Below, in pieces: positions 36,766 to 42,553 of a stretch of 64,000 nt of DNA (its first letter is position 1; each line of letters begins with the position of its first letter). The DNA lies in NCBI RefSeq assembly GCF_036227405.1, contig NZ_CP109473.1:2480001-2544000 (forward strand), given 5' to 3'. Below the pieces are notes generated by a model. It was not told where the DNA came from. It ran no database searches and worked only from the letters and a program-made list of their open reading frames with translations. Both the position numbers and the translations under genes were made by a program. The DNA is from Streptomyces sp. NBC_01460. Lineage in GTDB: Bacteria > Actinomycetota > Actinomycetes > Streptomycetales > Streptomycetaceae.

Positions 36766-36770
36766 GGGAG

Positions 36771-36870
36771 GCTCGTCATCATGCCCGTACAGGGGGAAGC
36801 CGGTGCGAATCCGGCGCCGACCCTTCCCCGCGCGCTCGGCCCAGCTCGAGCAGGGGAAACCCCATTCGAG
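36771..36870 (+). ncRNA. Cobalamin riboswitch-like leader
   Basis: Positions 36792-36823 carry the core of the cobalamin riboswitch: an AGGGGGAA stretch, then a GCCGGTGCGAATCCGGC stem-loop, then GCCGACCC closing the outer stem; the loop GGTGcgAATCC matches the consensus. A second hairpin (CTCGA ... TCGAG enclosing GGGGAAACCCC) at 36846-36870 precedes the likely ribosome site GAGAGG and could be the expression platform that hides it. The classical B12 box (AGYCAGGAGACCUGCC) is not evident, so this is a variant or I misjudge the 3' boundary. The downstream ECF genes support the call. Confidence 0.75.
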
Positions 36871-36884
36871 AGGCCCAGCCCTTC

Positions 36885-38144
36885 ATGTCCGTACGCCGCC
36901 GCGCGGCCGCGCTCGCGCTCACCGCCGTGCTCTGTGGAGCGGCCGCCCCGGTGGCGGTCGCCGCGCCGAGTCCCTCCCCGTCCCCCGCCACGCCGGACCT
37001 CCCGGCCGGGCTGTACGGCACCAAGGACCCGACGTACGACGGGGTCTGGCGCCAGTCGCTCGCGTTCCTCGCCCAGAAGGTCGAGCTGGTCACCCCCGCC
37101 ACGAAATCGGTCGACTGGCTCGTCGGCCAGCAGTGCGCCGGCGGTGCCTTCGCCGCCTACCGTGACGCGTCCGCGCCGTGCGACGCCAAGACCGTGGCGG
37201 ACACCAACGCCACGGCGGCGGCGGTCCAGGCCATGGTCGAACTCGGTGTGCACCGCGAGGTCGTGGACAACGGGGTCAGCTGGCTGAAGTCCGTCCAGAA
37301 CAAGGACGGCGGCTGGAGCTACAACCCGGGCGGCCCGAGCGACGCCAACTCCACCGCCGTCGTGACCGGGGCGCTGGCCCGGGCGGGCGTGCCGCTCGCC
37401 GATGTCACCACGGCGGACGGGAAGACCCCGTACACCGCGCTCCAGAGCTTCGCGCTGCCCTGCGGGGGCGAGGACGGCGGGGCGTTCGCCTACCAGCCGG
37501 ACAAGAAGGGCGAGCTCACCGCCAACGCGGACGCCACGGCGGCCTCGGTGATCGGCGCGATGGGCAAGGGCATGGCCGCGGGGAACTCCAACGCGGTGAA
37601 GGCCCCCGTCTGCCACGAGGGCACCGGCCTCACCGTCGAGCAGACCGCGCAGAACGGCGCCTCCTACCTGGCGAAGGCGCTCGCCGGGTCCGGGCACCTG
37701 GACCTGCCGCCGATGCCGGGCGCCGAGAAGTCCGACCCGCAGCCCGACTTCGGCAACACCGCCGACGCCGTCGTGGCGCTGGCGGCGGCCGGCCACAAGG
37801 ACAAGGCGGCCGGGGCGGTCACCTACCTGGAGAAGCACGCGCAGGGCTGGGCGAAGGAGGGCGGCCCCGCCGCCACCGCGCAGCTGGTGCTCGCCGTCCA
37901 CGCGACCGGCGGCGACGCGCGTGACTTCGGCGGCGTCGACCTCGTCAGGCAGCTCAACGCGACGGGTCCGGCCCCCGCCGCCACCGCCGTGCCCTCGCCC
38001 ACCGCGACGGCGCCGTCGAAGCCCGCGGACACGACCAGCGACGACGAGGGCCTCGGCCTCTGGTGGATCATCGGCATCGGTCTCGCCTTCGGCGCGGGCA
38101 TCGGCTTCCTGCTCAGCGGACGCCGGAAGAACCAGCAGCTGTGA
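36885..38144 (+). CDS. Surface-anchored squalene-cyclase-like alpha/alpha-toroid protein of the B12 operon
   Basis: 419 residues. Signal peptide (MSVRRRAAALALTAVLCG, cleavage near VAVAA), an alpha/alpha-toroid domain with prenyltransferase/squalene oxidase-type repeats (SVDWLVGQQCAGGAF, GVSWLKSVQNKDGGWSYN, NTADAVVALAAAGH), a Thr/Pro/Ala linker, then a C-terminal membrane helix (LWWIIGIGLAFGAGIGFLL) and basic tail. Four Cys in the ectodomain could form two disulphides. Animal intrinsic factor and transcobalamin use the same alpha/alpha toroid to hold B12; with the riboswitch and ECF genes this suggests a cell-surface B12 binder (inference). First gene of the operon. Confidence 0.85.
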   Translation: MSVRRRAAALALTAVLCGAAAPVAVAAPSPSPSPATPDLPAGLYGTKDPTYDGVWRQSLAFLAQKVELVTPATKSVDWLVGQQCAGGAFAAYRDASAPCDAKTVADTNATAAAVQAMVELGVHREVVDNGVSWLKSVQNKDGGWSYNPGGPSDANSTAVVTGALARAGVPLADVTTADGKTPYTALQSFALPCGGEDGGAFAYQPDKKGELTANADATAASVIGAMGKGMAAGNSNAVKAPVCHEGTGLTVEQTAQNGASYLAKALAGSGHLDLPPMPGAEKSDPQPDFGNTADAVVALAAAGHKDKAAGAVTYLEKHAQGWAKEGGPAATAQLVLAVHATGGDARDFGGVDLVRQLNATGPAPAATAVPSPTATAPSKPADTTSDDEGLGLWWIIGIGLAFGAGIGFLLSGRRKNQQL

Positions 38145-38830
38145 GGCGCCCGCTGGGCACGGCGGCGCTGCTCCTCCTCGTGGGCGCCGTCCTCGCCGTG
38201 CTGGGCGCGGGGAGCGCGCAGGCGGCCGGGTACCGCTACTGGTCGTTCTGGGAGGGCGACGGCGGGAAGGGCTGGACGTACGCCACACAGGGGCCGTCCG
38301 TCGTCCGGCCGGACGACGGCGCGGTGCAGGGCTTCCGCTTCTCGGTGAGCGAGGACTCCCAGGACTCGGCGCAGCCGCGCCGCGCCCCGGACTTCGGGGC
38401 CGTCTGCGCGGGCACCCCGGCGAAGGACGGCCGGAAGCGGGTGGCGCTGGTCGTCGACCCCGGCACGCCCGCGGACGCCCCCGCCGGCGAGAGGCCGCCC
38501 GCGCTGCGCACCGCCTGTGCCCAGGTGGCGCCGGACGCGAGCACGGCGGAGGCCCTCGCCTCGGTGGCGAAGCCGCTGCGGTACGACGGTTCCGCGATGC
38601 TCTGCGCGATATCCGGCTATCCGCGCTCGGGCTGCGGTGAGCAGACCGGGGACGGCGGGTCCGGAAAGGCCACCGCCACGGACGGGCCGTCCCCCTCCGA
38701 CGAGGACGCCACGACCGGCGGCGACAGCGAAGGCTCCGGCGGCGGCCCGTCGGCCGGTGTGCTGACCGGCGTCGGCGCGGTGCTCGTGCTGGGTGTCGCC
38801 GCAGTGCTCCAGGCCCGCCGCCGCCGATGA
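38141..38830 (+). CDS. SCO2322-family surface protein
   Basis: 229 residues. Signal peptide (VRRPLGTAALLLLVGAVLAV, cleavage near SAQAA), then a small domain beginning GYRYWSFWEGDGGKGWTYA, three Cys (AVCAGT, TACAQV, MLCAISGYPRSGCG makes further ones), a Gly/Ser/Thr/Glu linker and a C-terminal membrane helix with RRRR end. The opening YWSFW...W.YA recalls the beta domain of DUF4430/transcobalamin proteins, but that is only an impression. It has the same signal-ectodomain-linker-helix plan as the preceding protein and overlaps it (GTGA), so they may act as a pair. Confidence 0.85.
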   Translation: MRRPLGTAALLLLVGAVLAVLGAGSAQAAGYRYWSFWEGDGGKGWTYATQGPSVVRPDDGAVQGFRFSVSEDSQDSAQPRRAPDFGAVCAGTPAKDGRKRVALVVDPGTPADAPAGERPPALRTACAQVAPDASTAEALASVAKPLRYDGSAMLCAISGYPRSGCGEQTGDGGSGKATATDGPSPSDEDATTGGDSEGSGGGPSAGVLTGVGAVLVLGVAAVLQARRRR

Positions 38831-39972
38831 CCCGCTCCACCGGCCCGGCCCGGCTCCGCCCTGCCCTGAGCGCCCCCCGGGCGACCCGGGCCAACGCCGT
38901 GCCGGCCGGGGCCTGGTGGCTGTGGGCGCTCGGGCTGGCGACGGCCGCGTCCCGGACGACCAACCCGCTGCTGCTCGGGCTGCTGGTGGGGGTGGCCGGC
39001 TACGTGGTGGCGGCGCGCCGCACGGACGCCCCGTGGGCCCGGTCCTACGGGGCGTTCATCAGGCTGGGGCTGTTCGTCGTCGCCGTCCGCCTCGTCTTCT
39101 CCGTCGTCCTCGGCTCCTCCGTGCCGGGCACGGACACCCTCTTCACGCTCCCCGAGGTGCCGCTGCCCGGCTGGGCTCAGGGCATCAGGATCGGCGGCCG
39201 GGTCACCGGGGAGCAGCTGGTCTTCGCCCTGTACGAGGGCGCGAAGCTGGCCGCGCTGCTGATCTGCGTCGGGGCGGCCAACTCCCTTGCCAACCCCGCC
39301 AGACTGCTGAAGTCGCTGCCCGGCGCGCTGTACGAGGCCGGGGTCGCCGTCGTCGTCGCGATGACGTTCGCGCCGAACATGGTCGCCGACGTGGCCAGGC
39401 TGCGCACGGCCCGCCGGCTGCGCGGCCGTCCGACCGGCGGGATCCGGGCGGTGCTCCAGATCGGGCTGCCCGTACTGGAGGGCGCCCTGGAGCGCTCGGT
39501 GGCCGTGGCGGCGTCGATGGACGCGCGCGGCTACGGCCGCACCGCGCAGGTCCCGCCCGCCGTCCGCCGCACCACCCATGTGCTCACGCTCGGCGGGCTG
39601 CTGGGCGTGTGCGCGGGGACGTACGGACTGCTGGCCGCGCAGGGCGCCGCCCACGGGCTGCCGCTGCTGCTGGCCGGGCTGGTGGCGGCGCTGGCCGGGC
39701 TCCGGCTCGGCGGGCGCCGCTCGGTCCGCACCCGCTACCGCCCCGACCGGTGGGACGTGCGCGCCTGGCTCGTCGCCGCGTCGGGCGCGGCCGTCGCGGC
39801 GGCGATGATCCGGGCGGGCGCCGTCGATCCGGACGCCCTGCGCCCCGGTGTCGTGCCGCTCACGGCTCCGGTCCTTCCCCTGTGGCCGGCCGCCGCCGTA
39901 CTGATCGGGCTGCTGCCCGCCGTGGTGGCACCGCTGCCCCCTTCCCCCTCGGACTCCAAGGAGCGCCCATGA
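38827..39972 (+). CDS. ECF transporter transmembrane (T) component, CbiQ-like
   Basis: 381 residues. Membrane segments at both ends of the central coupling region; the family signature is seen as an Ala-Arg-Gly motif, MDARGYGRT near residue 235, within a cytosolic region that contacts the ATPases, and MTFAPNMVADVARLRTARRLRG upstream. It joins the S component to the ATPase. The last 110 residues add extra membrane segments beyond the usual CbiQ length (about 225-270), which is unusual. ATGA overlap with both neighbours. Confidence 0.9.
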   Translation: MTRSTGPARLRPALSAPRATRANAVPAGAWWLWALGLATAASRTTNPLLLGLLVGVAGYVVAARRTDAPWARSYGAFIRLGLFVVAVRLVFSVVLGSSVPGTDTLFTLPEVPLPGWAQGIRIGGRVTGEQLVFALYEGAKLAALLICVGAANSLANPARLLKSLPGALYEAGVAVVVAMTFAPNMVADVARLRTARRLRGRPTGGIRAVLQIGLPVLEGALERSVAVAASMDARGYGRTAQVPPAVRRTTHVLTLGGLLGVCAGTYGLLAAQGAAHGLPLLLAGLVAALAGLRLGGRRSVRTRYRPDRWDVRAWLVAASGAAVAAAMIRAGAVDPDALRPGVVPLTAPVLPLWPAAAVLIGLLPAVVAPLPPSPSDSKERP

Positions 39973-41684
39973 TCCGGTTCGAGCAGGTCTCGGTGCGGTA
40001 CGAAGGCGTCGAGCGCCCCACCCTGTCCGAGGTCGACCTCACGGTTCCCGAGGGCGAGCTGGTGCTCGTCGTCGGCCCGTCCGGTGTCGGCAAGTCGACT
40101 CTGCTGGGTGCCGTGTCCGGTCTCGTGCCGCACTTCACCGGCGGGACGCTGACGGGGCGGGTGACGGTCGGCGGCCGGGACACCCGTACGCACAAGCCGC
40201 GTGAACTCGCCGATCTGGTCGGCACGGTGGGCCAGGACCCGCTGGCCCACTTCGTGACGGACACCGTCGAGGACGAGCTGGCGTACGGCATGGAGTCGCT
40301 GGGCCTCGCCCCGGACGTCATGCGGCGCCGGGTCGAGGAGACCCTGGACCTGCTGGGCCTCGCCGAGCTGCGGGACCGGCCGATCGCCACGCTCTCCGGG
40401 GGCCAGCGGCAGCGGGTCGCCATCGGTTCGGTCCTCACCCCGCACCCCAGGGTGCTGGTCCTCGACGAGCCGACGTCCGCCCTGGACCCGGCCGCGGCCG
40501 AGGACGTCCTGGCGGTGCTCCAGCGGCTGGTGCACGACCTGGGGACGACGGTGCTGATGGCCGAGCACCGCCTGGAGCGTGTCGTGCAGTACGCCGACCA
40601 GGTCCTGCTGCTGCCCGCGCCGGGCACCGCACCGGTGATGGGCCGGCCGGCCGACATCATGGCGGTGTCGCCCGTCCGGCCCCCGGTCGTGGCCCTGGGC
40701 CGGCTGATGGGCTGGGATCCGCTGCCGCTGTCGGTGCGCGACGCACGGCGCAGGGCGGTGGACCTGCGGGAGCGGCTGGCCGACGTGGAGCCGCCGCCGC
40801 GCGCGGCCCCGGCCGATGTCCTGGTGGCCCCGCTGCCCGCGCCGGCCACGCCCCGGCCCGGTCTTCTCGGCCGGCTGCTGGGCCGCCGCCCGCACACCGT
40901 CCCCGCCGAGCCGCTGAAGGACGGCGGCGCCACCCGGGTCGAGGGGCTCGGGGTGCGGCACGGGCGGGTCCAGGCGCTGCGCGGGGTCACCCTGTCCGTC
41001 GTACCGGGCGAGACCGTCGCCCTGATGGGCCGCAACGGCGCGGGCAAGTCGACCCTGCTGACGACGCTCGTCGGGATGACCGCGCCGACCACGGGCTCCG
41101 TCCTCGTCGGCGGTCTGGAGCCGTCCCGCACCCCGCCGCGCGACATGGTGCGCCGGGTCGGGCTCGTCCCGCAGGAACCGCGCGACCTGCTGTACGCGGA
41201 CACGGTCGCGGCCGAGTGCGCGGCGGCGGACTCCGACGCTGGCGCGCCTGCGGGCAGTTGCCGGGCACTGGTCTCGGAGCTGCTGCCCGGGGTGCCGGAC
41301 GACGTCCACCCCCGGGACCTCTCCGAGGGGCAGCGGCTCGCGCTGGCCCTCGCCCTGGTGCTCACCGCCCGGCCCCCGCTCCTCCTCCTGGACGAGCCGA
41401 CGCGCGGCCTCGACTACGCGGCGAAGGCCCGGCTCGTCGGCGTACTGCGGCGGCTGGCCGGTGAGGGCCACGCGATCGTCCTCGCCACGCACGACGTGGA
41501 GCTGGCGGCGGAGCTGGCGGACCGGGTGGTGATCCTCGCCGACGGTGAGGTCGTCGCGGACGGGCCGACCCGGCAGGTCGTGGTCTCCTCCCCCGCGTTC
41601 GCCCCGCAGACCTCGAAGATCCTCAGGCCGCGGGAGTGGCTGACCGTGTCCCAGGTGCGTACGGCCCTGGAGGGACTCGCGTGA
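39969..41684 (+). CDS. ECF transporter ATPase, two ABC domains fused
   Basis: 571 residues holding two full ATPase domains, equivalent to EcfA1 and EcfA2 in one chain. Domain 1 (1-240): Walker A GPSGVGKST, signature LSGGQRQRVAIG, Walker B VLVLDEPTSALD. Domain 2 (320-560): Walker A GRNGAGKST, signature DLSEGQRLALALA, Walker B LLLLDEPTRGLD, switch ATHDVELA. The linker between them is Pro/Arg-rich. The second signature has Glu for the second Gly (LSEGQ), as in many ECF ATPases. Coupled by ATGA and GTGA overlaps. Confidence 0.92.
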   Translation: MIRFEQVSVRYEGVERPTLSEVDLTVPEGELVLVVGPSGVGKSTLLGAVSGLVPHFTGGTLTGRVTVGGRDTRTHKPRELADLVGTVGQDPLAHFVTDTVEDELAYGMESLGLAPDVMRRRVEETLDLLGLAELRDRPIATLSGGQRQRVAIGSVLTPHPRVLVLDEPTSALDPAAAEDVLAVLQRLVHDLGTTVLMAEHRLERVVQYADQVLLLPAPGTAPVMGRPADIMAVSPVRPPVVALGRLMGWDPLPLSVRDARRRAVDLRERLADVEPPPRAAPADVLVAPLPAPATPRPGLLGRLLGRRPHTVPAEPLKDGGATRVEGLGVRHGRVQALRGVTLSVVPGETVALMGRNGAGKSTLLTTLVGMTAPTTGSVLVGGLEPSRTPPRDMVRRVGLVPQEPRDLLYADTVAAECAAADSDAGAPAGSCRALVSELLPGVPDDVHPRDLSEGQRLALALALVLTARPPLLLLDEPTRGLDYAAKARLVGVLRRLAGEGHAIVLATHDVELAAELADRVVILADGEVVADGPTRQVVVSSPAFAPQTSKILRPREWLTVSQVRTALEGLA

Positions 41685-42553
41685 GCGCCGGGTCCGCCCG
41701 TCCGGTGCGGCTCGGACCCCGGGCCGTGGCCGCGCTGGTCCTGGTCAGCGCGGTGGGGCTGGTCGCGTTCGGCTGGCCGCTGCTGGCCGGGGCGGACTCC
41801 GGTCTCGCCCACGCCGAGGACGCGCCGTGGCTGTTCGCCGCGCTGCTGGTGCTGCTCGTCGGGGTCGTCGTCGCGACGATCGCGGACTCCGGTCTGGACG
41901 CGAAGGCCGTCGCGATGCTGGGGGTCCTCGCCGCCGTCGGCGCGGCGCTGCGCCCGCTGGGCGCGGGGACGGCGGGGCTGGAGCCGATGTTCTTCCTGAT
42001 GGTGCTGAGCGGCCGGGTGCTGGGCCCCGGCTTCGGCTTCGTGCTCGGATCCGTGACCATGTTCGCCTCGGCGCTGCTGACCGGCGGCGTCGGGCCGTGG
42101 ATGCCGTTCCAGATGCTGTCGATGGGCTGGTTCACCATGGGCGCCGGCCTGCTGCCGGGCCCGGACCGGCTGCGCGGCCGGGGCGAGCTGCTGATGCTGG
42201 CGGCGTACGGGTGCGTGGCGGCGTTCGCGTACGGCACGGTGATGAACCTGTACGGCTGGACGATCGTGCCGGGGCTCGGCTCGGGCATCTCCTTCGTCGC
42301 GGGCGACCCGCTCCACGAGAACCTGGTCCGCTTCCTCGCCTACTGCACCGCCACCTCGCTCGGCTGGGACCTGGGCCGGGCCGTCCTCACGGTGGCCCTG
42401 ACCCTGGCCGTCGGGCCCACCCTGCTCCGGGCCCTGCGCCGTGCCACCCGCCGCGCCGCCTTCGACGCGCGGGCGGACTTCGACGCGCGGGCGGACTTCG
42501 ACGCACGGGCGGGCGTCGACGTGCGGGCGGACTCCGGGGTCCGCGCGGAGTGA
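41681..42553 (+). CDS. ECF transporter S component, probably for cobalamin
   Basis: 290 residues with about six membrane segments (for example VAALVLVSAVGLVAFGWPLLAG, LFAALLVLLVGVVVATIA, FMVLSGRVLGPGFGFVLGSVTM-type segment at about 105-130, YGCVAAFAYGTVMNLYGW). It is the substrate-binding membrane subunit; the riboswitch points to cobalamin (a CbrT-like role, inference). The extreme C-terminus is a hexapeptide repeat (FDARAD and variants, five units) encoded by an 18-base tandem repeat, not part of the fold. GTG 41681 overlaps the ATPase stop; its stop is one base from the convergent quiC-like gene. Confidence 0.88.
   Translation: MSAGSARPVRLGPRAVAALVLVSAVGLVAFGWPLLAGADSGLAHAEDAPWLFAALLVLLVGVVVATIADSGLDAKAVAMLGVLAAVGAALRPLGAGTAGLEPMFFLMVLSGRVLGPGFGFVLGSVTMFASALLTGGVGPWMPFQMLSMGWFTMGAGLLPGPDRLRGRGELLMLAAYGCVAAFAYGTVMNLYGWTIVPGLGSGISFVAGDPLHENLVRFLAYCTATSLGWDLGRAVLTVALTLAVGPTLLRALRRATRRAAFDARADFDARADFDARAGVDVRADSGVRAE
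42461..42550 (+). repeat. 18-base tandem repeat encoding a hexapeptide tail
   Basis: Five consecutive 18-base units; the first two are identical (TTCGACGCGCGGGCGGAC), the third differs at 2-3 positions, the fourth and fifth diverge further. They encode FDARAD, FDARAD, FDARAG, VDVRAD, SGVRAE at the end of the S component. Confidence 0.9.

What the first reader, a model, noticed from the sequence alone, without database searches (positions are those of the whole stretch)
36771..42553. B12-riboswitch-like operon pairing an ECF transporter with two surface-anchored capture proteins
A cobalamin riboswitch core precedes five overlapping genes: a secreted, membrane-anchored alpha/alpha-toroid protein, a secreted, membrane-anchored SCO2322-family protein, then the T, fused A-A and S components of an ECF importer. 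Animal intrinsic factor and transcobalamin bind B12 between an alpha/alpha toroid and a small beta domain. The two surface proteins could be a split bacterial counterpart, tethered by helices and handing B12 to the S component. ECF importers normally lack a dedicated extracellular capture protein, so this would be a new kind of uptake machine in Gram-positive bacteria. The riboswitch, layout and anchors are seen; the B12-binding role is inference.
Basis: partly seen in the sequence, partly recalled or inferred. Interest (0 to 1): 0.85.

Follow-up and report, generated by a model that had tools for sequence, protein, structure and literature searches.

The report
Split bacterial transcobalamin with B12 importer
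A Streptomyces operon appears to encode a bacterial version of the animal vitamin-B12 carrier, split into two membrane-anchored halves whose domains are each rearranged head-to-tail, that probably catches B12 outside the cell and passes it to an energy-driven importer.

Summary
In detail: five genes overlapping by 4 bases (36885-42553), SCO2321-family toroid, SCO2322-family protein, EcfT, fused EcfA-A, S component, behind a cobalamin-riboswitch core. RF00174 scores 20.5 bits, under its cut-off of 31.5: in this clade a hairpin repeat sits inside the aptamer and its 3' half is gone. Many other Streptomyces keep a full element, and 9 of 20 loci fetched across Actinomycetota have an above-cut-off B12 riboswitch directly upstream. 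The central guess is largely supported. A natural toroid-beta fusion of this family (P0254, pLDDT 88.5) has transcobalamin and intrinsic factor as its twelve best Foldseek matches, though with another domain orientation, and also matches the isolated human transcobalamin beta domain (TMt 0.67). The window proteins are those domains split apart, and each is circularly permuted (81 of 81 toroids, 80 of 80 beta domains in the Streptomyces loci), which hides them from Pfam. One protein joins part of an S component to a toroid. Novelty is less than claimed: toroid plus transcobalamin-like proteins beside CbiO/CbiQ genes were predicted to scavenge B12 in Gram-positives in 2007. New here: the actinobacterial branch, split and double permutation, and the broken switch. 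B12 binding is untested.

The parts
36769..36849 (+). Truncated cobalamin riboswitch (5' half with the GCCGGTGCGAATCCGGC core); RF00174 match at 36793-36862
36824..36870 (+). Hairpin repeat lying inside the former aptamer; the aptamer's 3' half and roughly 100 nt of leader found in relatives are missing after it
   Evidence: boundaries read from the alignment, approximate
36885..38144 (+). SCO2321-family protein: signal peptide, alpha/alpha toroid (circularly permuted), C-terminal membrane helix
37035..37541 (+). Piece of SCO2321 (residues 51-219) matching the C-terminal part of the canonical toroid
   Evidence: hmm 132-294
37635..37964 (+). Piece of SCO2321 (residues 251-360) matching the N-terminal part of the canonical toroid
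   Evidence: hmm 8-112
38141..38830 (+). SCO2322-family protein: signal peptide, beta domain (circularly permuted transcobalamin-type), GPS-CTERM-like membrane tail
38219..38383 (+). Piece of SCO2322 (residues 27-81) matching the C-terminal half of the canonical beta domain
   Evidence: hmm 72-126
38429..38647 (+). Piece of SCO2322 (residues 97-169) matching the N-terminal half of the canonical beta domain
   Evidence: hmm 6-75
38827..39972 (+). EcfT-like transmembrane coupling protein
39969..41684 (+). Fused EcfA-EcfA' ATPases
41681..42553 (+). ECF S component

Best explanation
The operon is a B12 (cobamide/corrinoid) import system of the ECF type with a dedicated extracellular capture pair. 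Two secreted proteins, each held by a C-terminal membrane helix, are the alpha/alpha-toroid and beta domains of a bacterial transcobalamin that has been split into two chains, each circularly permuted relative to the fused and animal forms. The likely mechanism: the toroid and beta domains close on a corrinoid at the membrane surface and deliver it to the S component, and EcfT with the fused EcfA-A drives transport. Shown here: operon anatomy, homology to natural toroid-beta fusions, the fold match of one such fusion to transcobalamin/intrinsic factor, the permutation, the phylum-wide riboswitch link, and a chain joining part of an S component to a toroid. Inferred: corrinoid binding, clamping between the two chains, hand-over to S. 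Most Streptomyces leaders examined keep a complete B12 riboswitch; in this window and its near relatives the aptamer is truncated at a repeat, so expression here is probably no longer repressed by B12 in that way.
For: Synteny: T, A-A and S homologues in 20 of 20 extended loci (19 genomes) across Actinomycetota, chosen for a beta-domain match; 16 of 20 also have a toroid. B12 link: above-cut-off RF00174 directly upstream on the same strand in 9 of 20 loci (L122, L124, L125, L127, L128, L129, L132, L134, L135) and in 8 of 12 Streptomyces loci tested, against 6 such elements in the whole 8.8-Mb own genome; of 20 genomes searched (the 19 hosts and the own genome) 15 have no CbiC/CobH match, 11 of 16 if only the well-assembled ones are counted, as expected for B12 auxotrophs. 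Capture pair: P0254 model (mean pLDDT 88.5, pTM 0.86) gives transcobalamin or intrinsic factor as Foldseek ranks 1-12 (E 1.5e-8 to 2.4e-7, 418-471 columns, i.e. both domains) and the isolated human transcobalamin beta domain at rank 50 (E 0.015, TMt 0.67, 3.3 A). Window proteins belong to the same families: toroid 6.5e-21 and 2.7e-12 for two swapped pieces, beta 2.8e-14 and 4.3e-13 for two swapped pieces. Rotating the window sequences in silico raises the single-domain score from 88.5 to 142.9 and from 43.4 to 75.7 bits. Swapped order in 81 of 81 toroids and 80 of 80 beta domains of the window plus Streptomyces loci. P0280 joins part of an S component (second half of the profile, 3.8e-18) to a toroid (5.6e-33).
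Confidence: 0.8

Rival explanations
1. The same architecture, but the physiological ligand is a B12 precursor or remodelling substrate (cobinamide, non-native cobamides) rather than cobalamin, salvaged by a B12-producing streptomycete.
For: Own genome has de novo pathway genes and other uptake candidates behind riboswitch leaders, so a salvage niche is plausible. PMC5997447 (passages seen) reports that ECF-CbrT carries both cobalamin and cobinamide.
Against: 15 of 20 genomes searched lack CbiC and would need a complete corrinoid or at least cobinamide; nothing here discriminates ligands.
Confidence: 0.3
2. The substrate is not a corrinoid: the operon imports another B12-linked solute (for example chelated cobalt) and the surface proteins are accessory or structural parts.
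For: The T component is most like CbiQ, 'cobalt transport protein'; a cobalt S component (CbiM, L082) is also behind a B12 riboswitch in this genome.
Against: The S component is PF12822-like rather than CbiM, the genome already has CbiM, and fused relatives of the accessory proteins have the transcobalamin two-domain architecture.
Confidence: 0.08
3. SCO2321 is a secreted terpene-cyclase-like enzyme and its operon neighbours are unrelated in function to B12.
For: Sequence and fold neighbours include squalene-hopene and drimenyl diphosphate synthases.
Against: Signal peptide and anchor; no DxDD acid motif in the toroid (read by eye; motif recalled); relatives are fused to beta domains or to part of an S component; riboswitch link.
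Confidence: 0.03
4. The leader in this window is still a working B12 riboswitch that uses the repeat's stem in place of the lost 3' half.
For: The repeat supplies GGAAACC, which cmscan aligns to the family's 3' consensus; the core is preserved in the near relatives; the model score of this clade (57-67 bits) overlaps that of some leaders that keep the 3' strand but have decayed cores (from 62 bits).
Against: The conserved stretch between core and 3' strand (CGCAGCCGTGA ... AGTCGGAATGCCC in relatives) is absent; 24 leaders with the 3' strand that were not used to build the model score 76-119 bits.
Confidence: 0.15

Closest known systems
Animal transcobalamin / intrinsic factor / haptocorrin
   Same: Two domains, alpha/alpha toroid and small beta domain; fused relatives have them in the same order (toroid then beta) and match by Foldseek over both
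   Different: In Streptomyces the domains are separate membrane-anchored chains and each is circularly permuted; about 11-17% identity to the fused relative P0254 and a different modelled domain orientation; ligand untested
Transcobalamin-like SLBB (DUF4430, PF14478) surface proteins with CbiO/CbiQ operons (PMC1796856, section 7 read)
   Same: Secreted or anchored toroid and beta-grasp proteins encoded with ECF-type genes; proposed B12 scavenging
   Different: Not detected by PF14478; split with both domains permuted; B12-riboswitch leaders shown here; the passages read place that clade in low-GC Gram-positives, planctomycetes and some euryarchaea. PF14478 itself does occur in 51 of 296 sampled Actinomycetota genomes
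ECF-CbrT B12 transporter of Lactobacillus delbrueckii (PMC5997447, passages seen)
   Same: ECF transporter for cobalamin and cobinamide, S component captures substrate
   Different: CbrT shares a module with other S components, and no surface capture protein is mentioned in the passages seen; here T, A-A and S are in one operon with two surface proteins; no sequence match to a solved S component
BtuG/BtuH surface B12-binding proteins of Bacteroides (search listings with abstract starts only: PMC6143338, PMC8941943)
   Same: Surface proteins that capture B12 ahead of an importer
   Different: Gram-negative, TonB-dependent importer, other folds (recalled)

Membership tests
Cobalamin riboswitch RF00174 (window leader) | Score above the family's gathering threshold | tested here: not met
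   20.5 bits against 31.5
Cobalamin riboswitch RF00174 (window leader) | Conserved GGTG-AATCC core | tested here: met
   Exact core at 36799
Cobalamin riboswitch RF00174 (window leader) | 3' half of the aptamer present | tested here: not met
   No 3' strand motif in the window; motif found in 68 of 81 leaders (63 without and 5 with the repeat; the 4 leaders without a core were not scanned for it)
Cobalamin riboswitch RF00174 (leaders of relatives) | Above threshold, and covarying stems | tested here: met
   8 of 12 Streptomyces loci; 47 cells changed on both sides against 13.3 in shuffles (0 of 500 reach it), 7 pairs with such a change against 5.3 (8 of 500 reach it)
Transcobalamin / intrinsic factor | alpha/alpha toroid domain | tested here: met
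   Window SCO2321 to canonical toroid E 6.5e-21 and 2.7e-12; fold shown on relative P0254
Transcobalamin / intrinsic factor | Small transcobalamin-type beta domain | tested here: met
   Relative P0254: isolated TC beta domain 5np4 TMt 0.67; window SCO2322 belongs to the same domain family by hhalign, permuted; the window's own model gave no PDB match
Transcobalamin / intrinsic factor | Toroid then beta domain in one chain | tested here: not met
   Two chains, both permuted; met in P0254 and 17 others
Transcobalamin / intrinsic factor | Pfam match PF01122 or PF14478 above cut-off | tested here: not met
   None in either window protein at E up to 1; no PF14478 in own genome at E up to 0.01; L128 fusion 16.1 bits to PF01122, cut-off 25
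Transcobalamin / intrinsic factor | Binds cobalamin between the two domains | not testable with these tools
   needs purified protein
ECF transporter with its own module (group I) | Two ECF-type ATPase domains | tested here: met
   PF00005 twice; TIGR04521 295 bits, under its equivalog cut-off of 330
ECF transporter with its own module (group I) | EcfT (PF02361) and S component (PF12822) | tested here: inconclusive
   19.7 of 25 and 29.4 of 30.7 bits; homologues of T, A and S together in 20 of 20 loci
CbrT-type S component | Sequence relation to CbrT | tested here: inconclusive
   Profile A7 matched only two unrelated PDB chains at E up to 10
Type II terpene cyclase | DxDD catalytic motif | tested here: not met
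   Absent from the toroid on reading the translation (motif recalled)

The most novel reading that the evidence does not exclude
Streptomyces carries, as a near-universal genus trait (95 of 101 genomes above cut-off), a split and doubly circularly permuted transcobalamin: two anchored chains that must come together around B12 and dock on an ECF S component, giving ECF importers a true substrate-binding-protein stage; the S-component/toroid chain P0280 is the same machine joined up.
Probability: 0.6. Interest if true: 0.82.

Novelty: new variant of a known kind. Interest (0 to 1): 0.72.

Why it matters
It would identify a B12 acquisition system present in nearly all Streptomyces sampled and scattered through Actinomycetota, explain two 'SCO' families of unknown function, and provide bacterial relatives of the animal B12 carriers in which the two ligand-gripping halves are naturally separate proteins. 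It also offers a clear natural case in which both domains of a two-domain binder have been circularly permuted, and a testable way for an ECF importer to use an external binding protein.

Tried and rejected
Rejected: terpene-cyclase role (secretion, missing motif, fusions). Rejected as sole evidence: Pfam DUF4430, which does not detect the family and compares only weakly by profile. Order-dependent structure searches with the permuted window SCO2322 model gave nothing; that says little for a permuted fold. PDB sequence search with the canonical beta profile gave only chance matches, likewise with the S-component profile. An early HMM set had the SCO2322 model contaminated by over-long reading frames and matched ATPases; it was rebuilt with trimmed sequences and only the latter is used. 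Offsets printed are 500 too large (script error); positions come. The automatic core choice for L007 picked a false core; searches show its true core (1 mismatch) followed by the repeat without the 3' half, so 9 of 81 leaders are of the window's type. In one search four loci (L018, L021, L023, L025) had no core with at most 1 mismatch; the model R1 still finds a degraded element there (43-77 bits). Six of the intact leaders scored (L041, L009, L034, L059, L006, L080) were used to build R1, so repeats the comparison with 24 that were not. The repeat scan over 81 sequences gave 15 matches (8 in riboswitch leaders, 7 elsewhere; the window's own copy has diverged too far to be among them), 0 for the reversed control; in the own genome it is not clearly multi-copy (4 matches including the window's with up to 3 mismatches, control 2; only the window's for its exact sequence). 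The toroid is built of repeats, so cross-register matches occur (hits 3-6); the strongest of the long collinear ones has E 3.6e-5. Two of the three rotation controls (L123, L136) were among the sequences behind the HMM; the third (L129) was not. Literature: 10 searches found no paper on SCO2321-2325 as a B12 system (one unrelated paper, search listing only) and, for the phrases, only PMC1796856 and a fish paper; subscription papers are mostly not held, e.g. Rodionov 2009 and Borovok 2006, and the latter's list of putative S. coelicolor B12 riboswitches, known to me only through PMC4991794 passages, may include this operon.
Full report
OBSERVATION. NCBI's family models name the first two SCO2321_fam (557 bits) and SCO2322_fam (227 bits); the others are a CbiQ-like T component, a chain with two ABC ATPase stretches, and an S component just under the PF12822 cut-off. 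Both surface proteins show an N-terminal signal and a C-terminal hydrophobic tail by eye. The SCO2321 family is above cut-off in 95 of 101 sampled Streptomyces genomes, so this is a near-universal trait of the genus.

THE RIBOSWITCH. The core is exact, but RF00174 reaches 20.5 bits only, under the threshold of 31.5. Eighty Streptomyces homologues (the best 80 of 456) show why. Of 81 leaders (window included), 63 have core and 3' strand without a repeat, 5 have both with a hairpin repeat between them, 8 have the repeat and no 3' strand, 4 have no core by the pattern and 1 (L007) was misassigned by the script and belongs with the 8. The window and its nearest relatives (L001-L005, L007, L030, 88-91% identity) are in the repeat-without-3'-strand group, and L036 (74%) too. 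Their core lies 83-91 bases before the start codon, against 163-288 in the leaders that keep the 3' strand (L007). The repeat also occurs elsewhere in these loci (7 of 15 matches are outside the leaders, control 0), though it is not clearly multi-copy in the own genome. Relatives pass Rfam's threshold in 8 of 12 loci tested; L001, L005, L010 and L067 did not. With a model made from 34 intact leaders, 24 intact leaders not used for it score 76-119 bits and the other 5 unused ones (L011, L012, L014, L020, L027, most with altered cores) 62-83; leaders with repeat and 3' strand 69-85; the window's clade 57-67; L036 17. The lowest intact-type scores overlap the window's clade, so the argument rests on the missing 3' half, not on the score alone. 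Stems of the relatives covary (47 cells changed on both sides against 13.3 in shuffles; 7 pairs against 5.3). So the operon was under a B12 riboswitch, and in this window it is probably broken.

PHYLUM-WIDE PICTURE. NF040672 matches 54 of 396 Actinomycetota genomes, 13 above cut-off. I extended 20 loci from 19 genomes. All 20 have T, A-A and S homologues, 16 a toroid (none in L120, L121, L122, L137). In 9 of 20 an above-cut-off RF00174 lies directly upstream on the same strand (L122, L124, L125, L127, L128, L129, L132, L134, L135); L136 has one on the opposite strand and L129 has three more. The own genome has 6 above-cut-off elements in 8.8 Mb, before genes for an ABC binding protein of the siderophore/BtuF type, CbiM, MetE, CbiB, NrdA and CobN (some of these frames are cut by the locus ends and score under the cut-offs). 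Of 20 genomes searched (those 19 and the own), 15 lack CbiC/CobH; counting only genomes at least 90% complete and at most 5% contaminated, 11 of 16 lack it. That fits B12 auxotrophs, whereas the two Streptomyces, G062, G204 and G134 have it.

CIRCULAR PERMUTATION. In four distant relatives (L121-L124) the Streptomyces SCO2322 profile matches in two pieces in the reverse order. Profile comparison of the Streptomyces family with 14 canonical-order relatives gives two swapped alignments, E 2.8e-14 and 4.3e-13. The toroid behaves the same way: SCO2321 residues 52-224 match the C-terminal part and 252-360 the N-terminal part of the canonical toroid, E 6.5e-21 and 2.7e-12, with the strongest long collinear alignment at 3.6e-5. 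All 81 toroids and all 80 beta domains of the window plus Streptomyces loci are swapped; toroids of 15 of the 20 extended loci align in one canonical piece. Rotating the window ectodomains at about residue 227 and 91 lifts the score from 88.5 to 142.9 and from 43.4 to 75.7 bits, while three canonical controls (two of them behind the HMM) peak unrotated. L120, outside Streptomyces, shares the permuted beta order. One Streptomyces genome (G171) holds both a permuted operon (L139) and a canonical-order one (L136).

FUSIONS. Toroid and beta domain are one chain in L126, L127 and L128 (one genus, Euzebya by the names of P0241 and P0244) and in 18 of the 40 proteins found with L128's protein. P0254 (469 residues) is little more than the two domains. 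P0280 joins a stretch matching the second half of the S-component profile to a toroid.

MECHANISM AND STATUS. Best reading: two anchored halves grip a corrinoid outside the membrane and deliver it to the S component, driven by T and A-A. Anatomy, homology, fold of the fused relative, permutation and riboswitch link are shown; binding, clamping and hand-over are inferred. The likely value in a B12-making streptomycete is salvage.

WHAT IS KNOWN. PMC1796856 (section 7 and passages read) described toroid plus transcobalamin-like SLBB surface proteins in operons with CbiO and CbiQ, proposed B12 scavenging, and noted that the hosts usually lack key B12 synthesis enzymes. In PMC1949818 the passages shown mention a permuted beta-grasp domain only for ubiquitin E1 enzymes. 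PMC4991794 (passages) says Streptomyces coelicolor has putative B12 riboswitches before eight further genes or clusters; three are named there and are not this operon, the rest I did not see. No paper on this operon was found in the searches listed under Tried and rejected. Hence a new variant of a known kind: actinobacterial, split, doubly permuted, riboswitch-linked.

Noticed in passing
window 36824-36870; L008, L037, L053, L055, L077 leaders: The same kind of hairpin repeat sits at the same point of the riboswitch (about 30 bases after the core) in several Streptomyces lineages, as if it inserts there repeatedly.
   Followed up: partly
L014, L054, L027, L018, L021, L023, L025 leaders: In these relatives (70-72% identity in SCO2321) the riboswitch core itself has decayed (for example GCCGGAGACCGTCCGGC), suggesting a further, separate loss of B12 control.
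   Followed up: partly
P0280 (536 aa): Chain joining part of an ECF S component to a toroid domain, named by its source as an ECF substrate-specific component.
   Followed up: partly
L129 (G204): Two toroid and two beta-domain genes and four B12 riboswitches within 15 kb.
   Followed up: no
L136 and L139 (G171): One Streptomyces genome carries both a permuted and a canonical-order version of the operon; a DUF4430 match lies near the canonical one (G171:C1:3658981).
   Followed up: no
L121, L122, L137: Operons with beta domain and ECF genes but no toroid nearby; L122 has a B12 riboswitch upstream.
   Followed up: no
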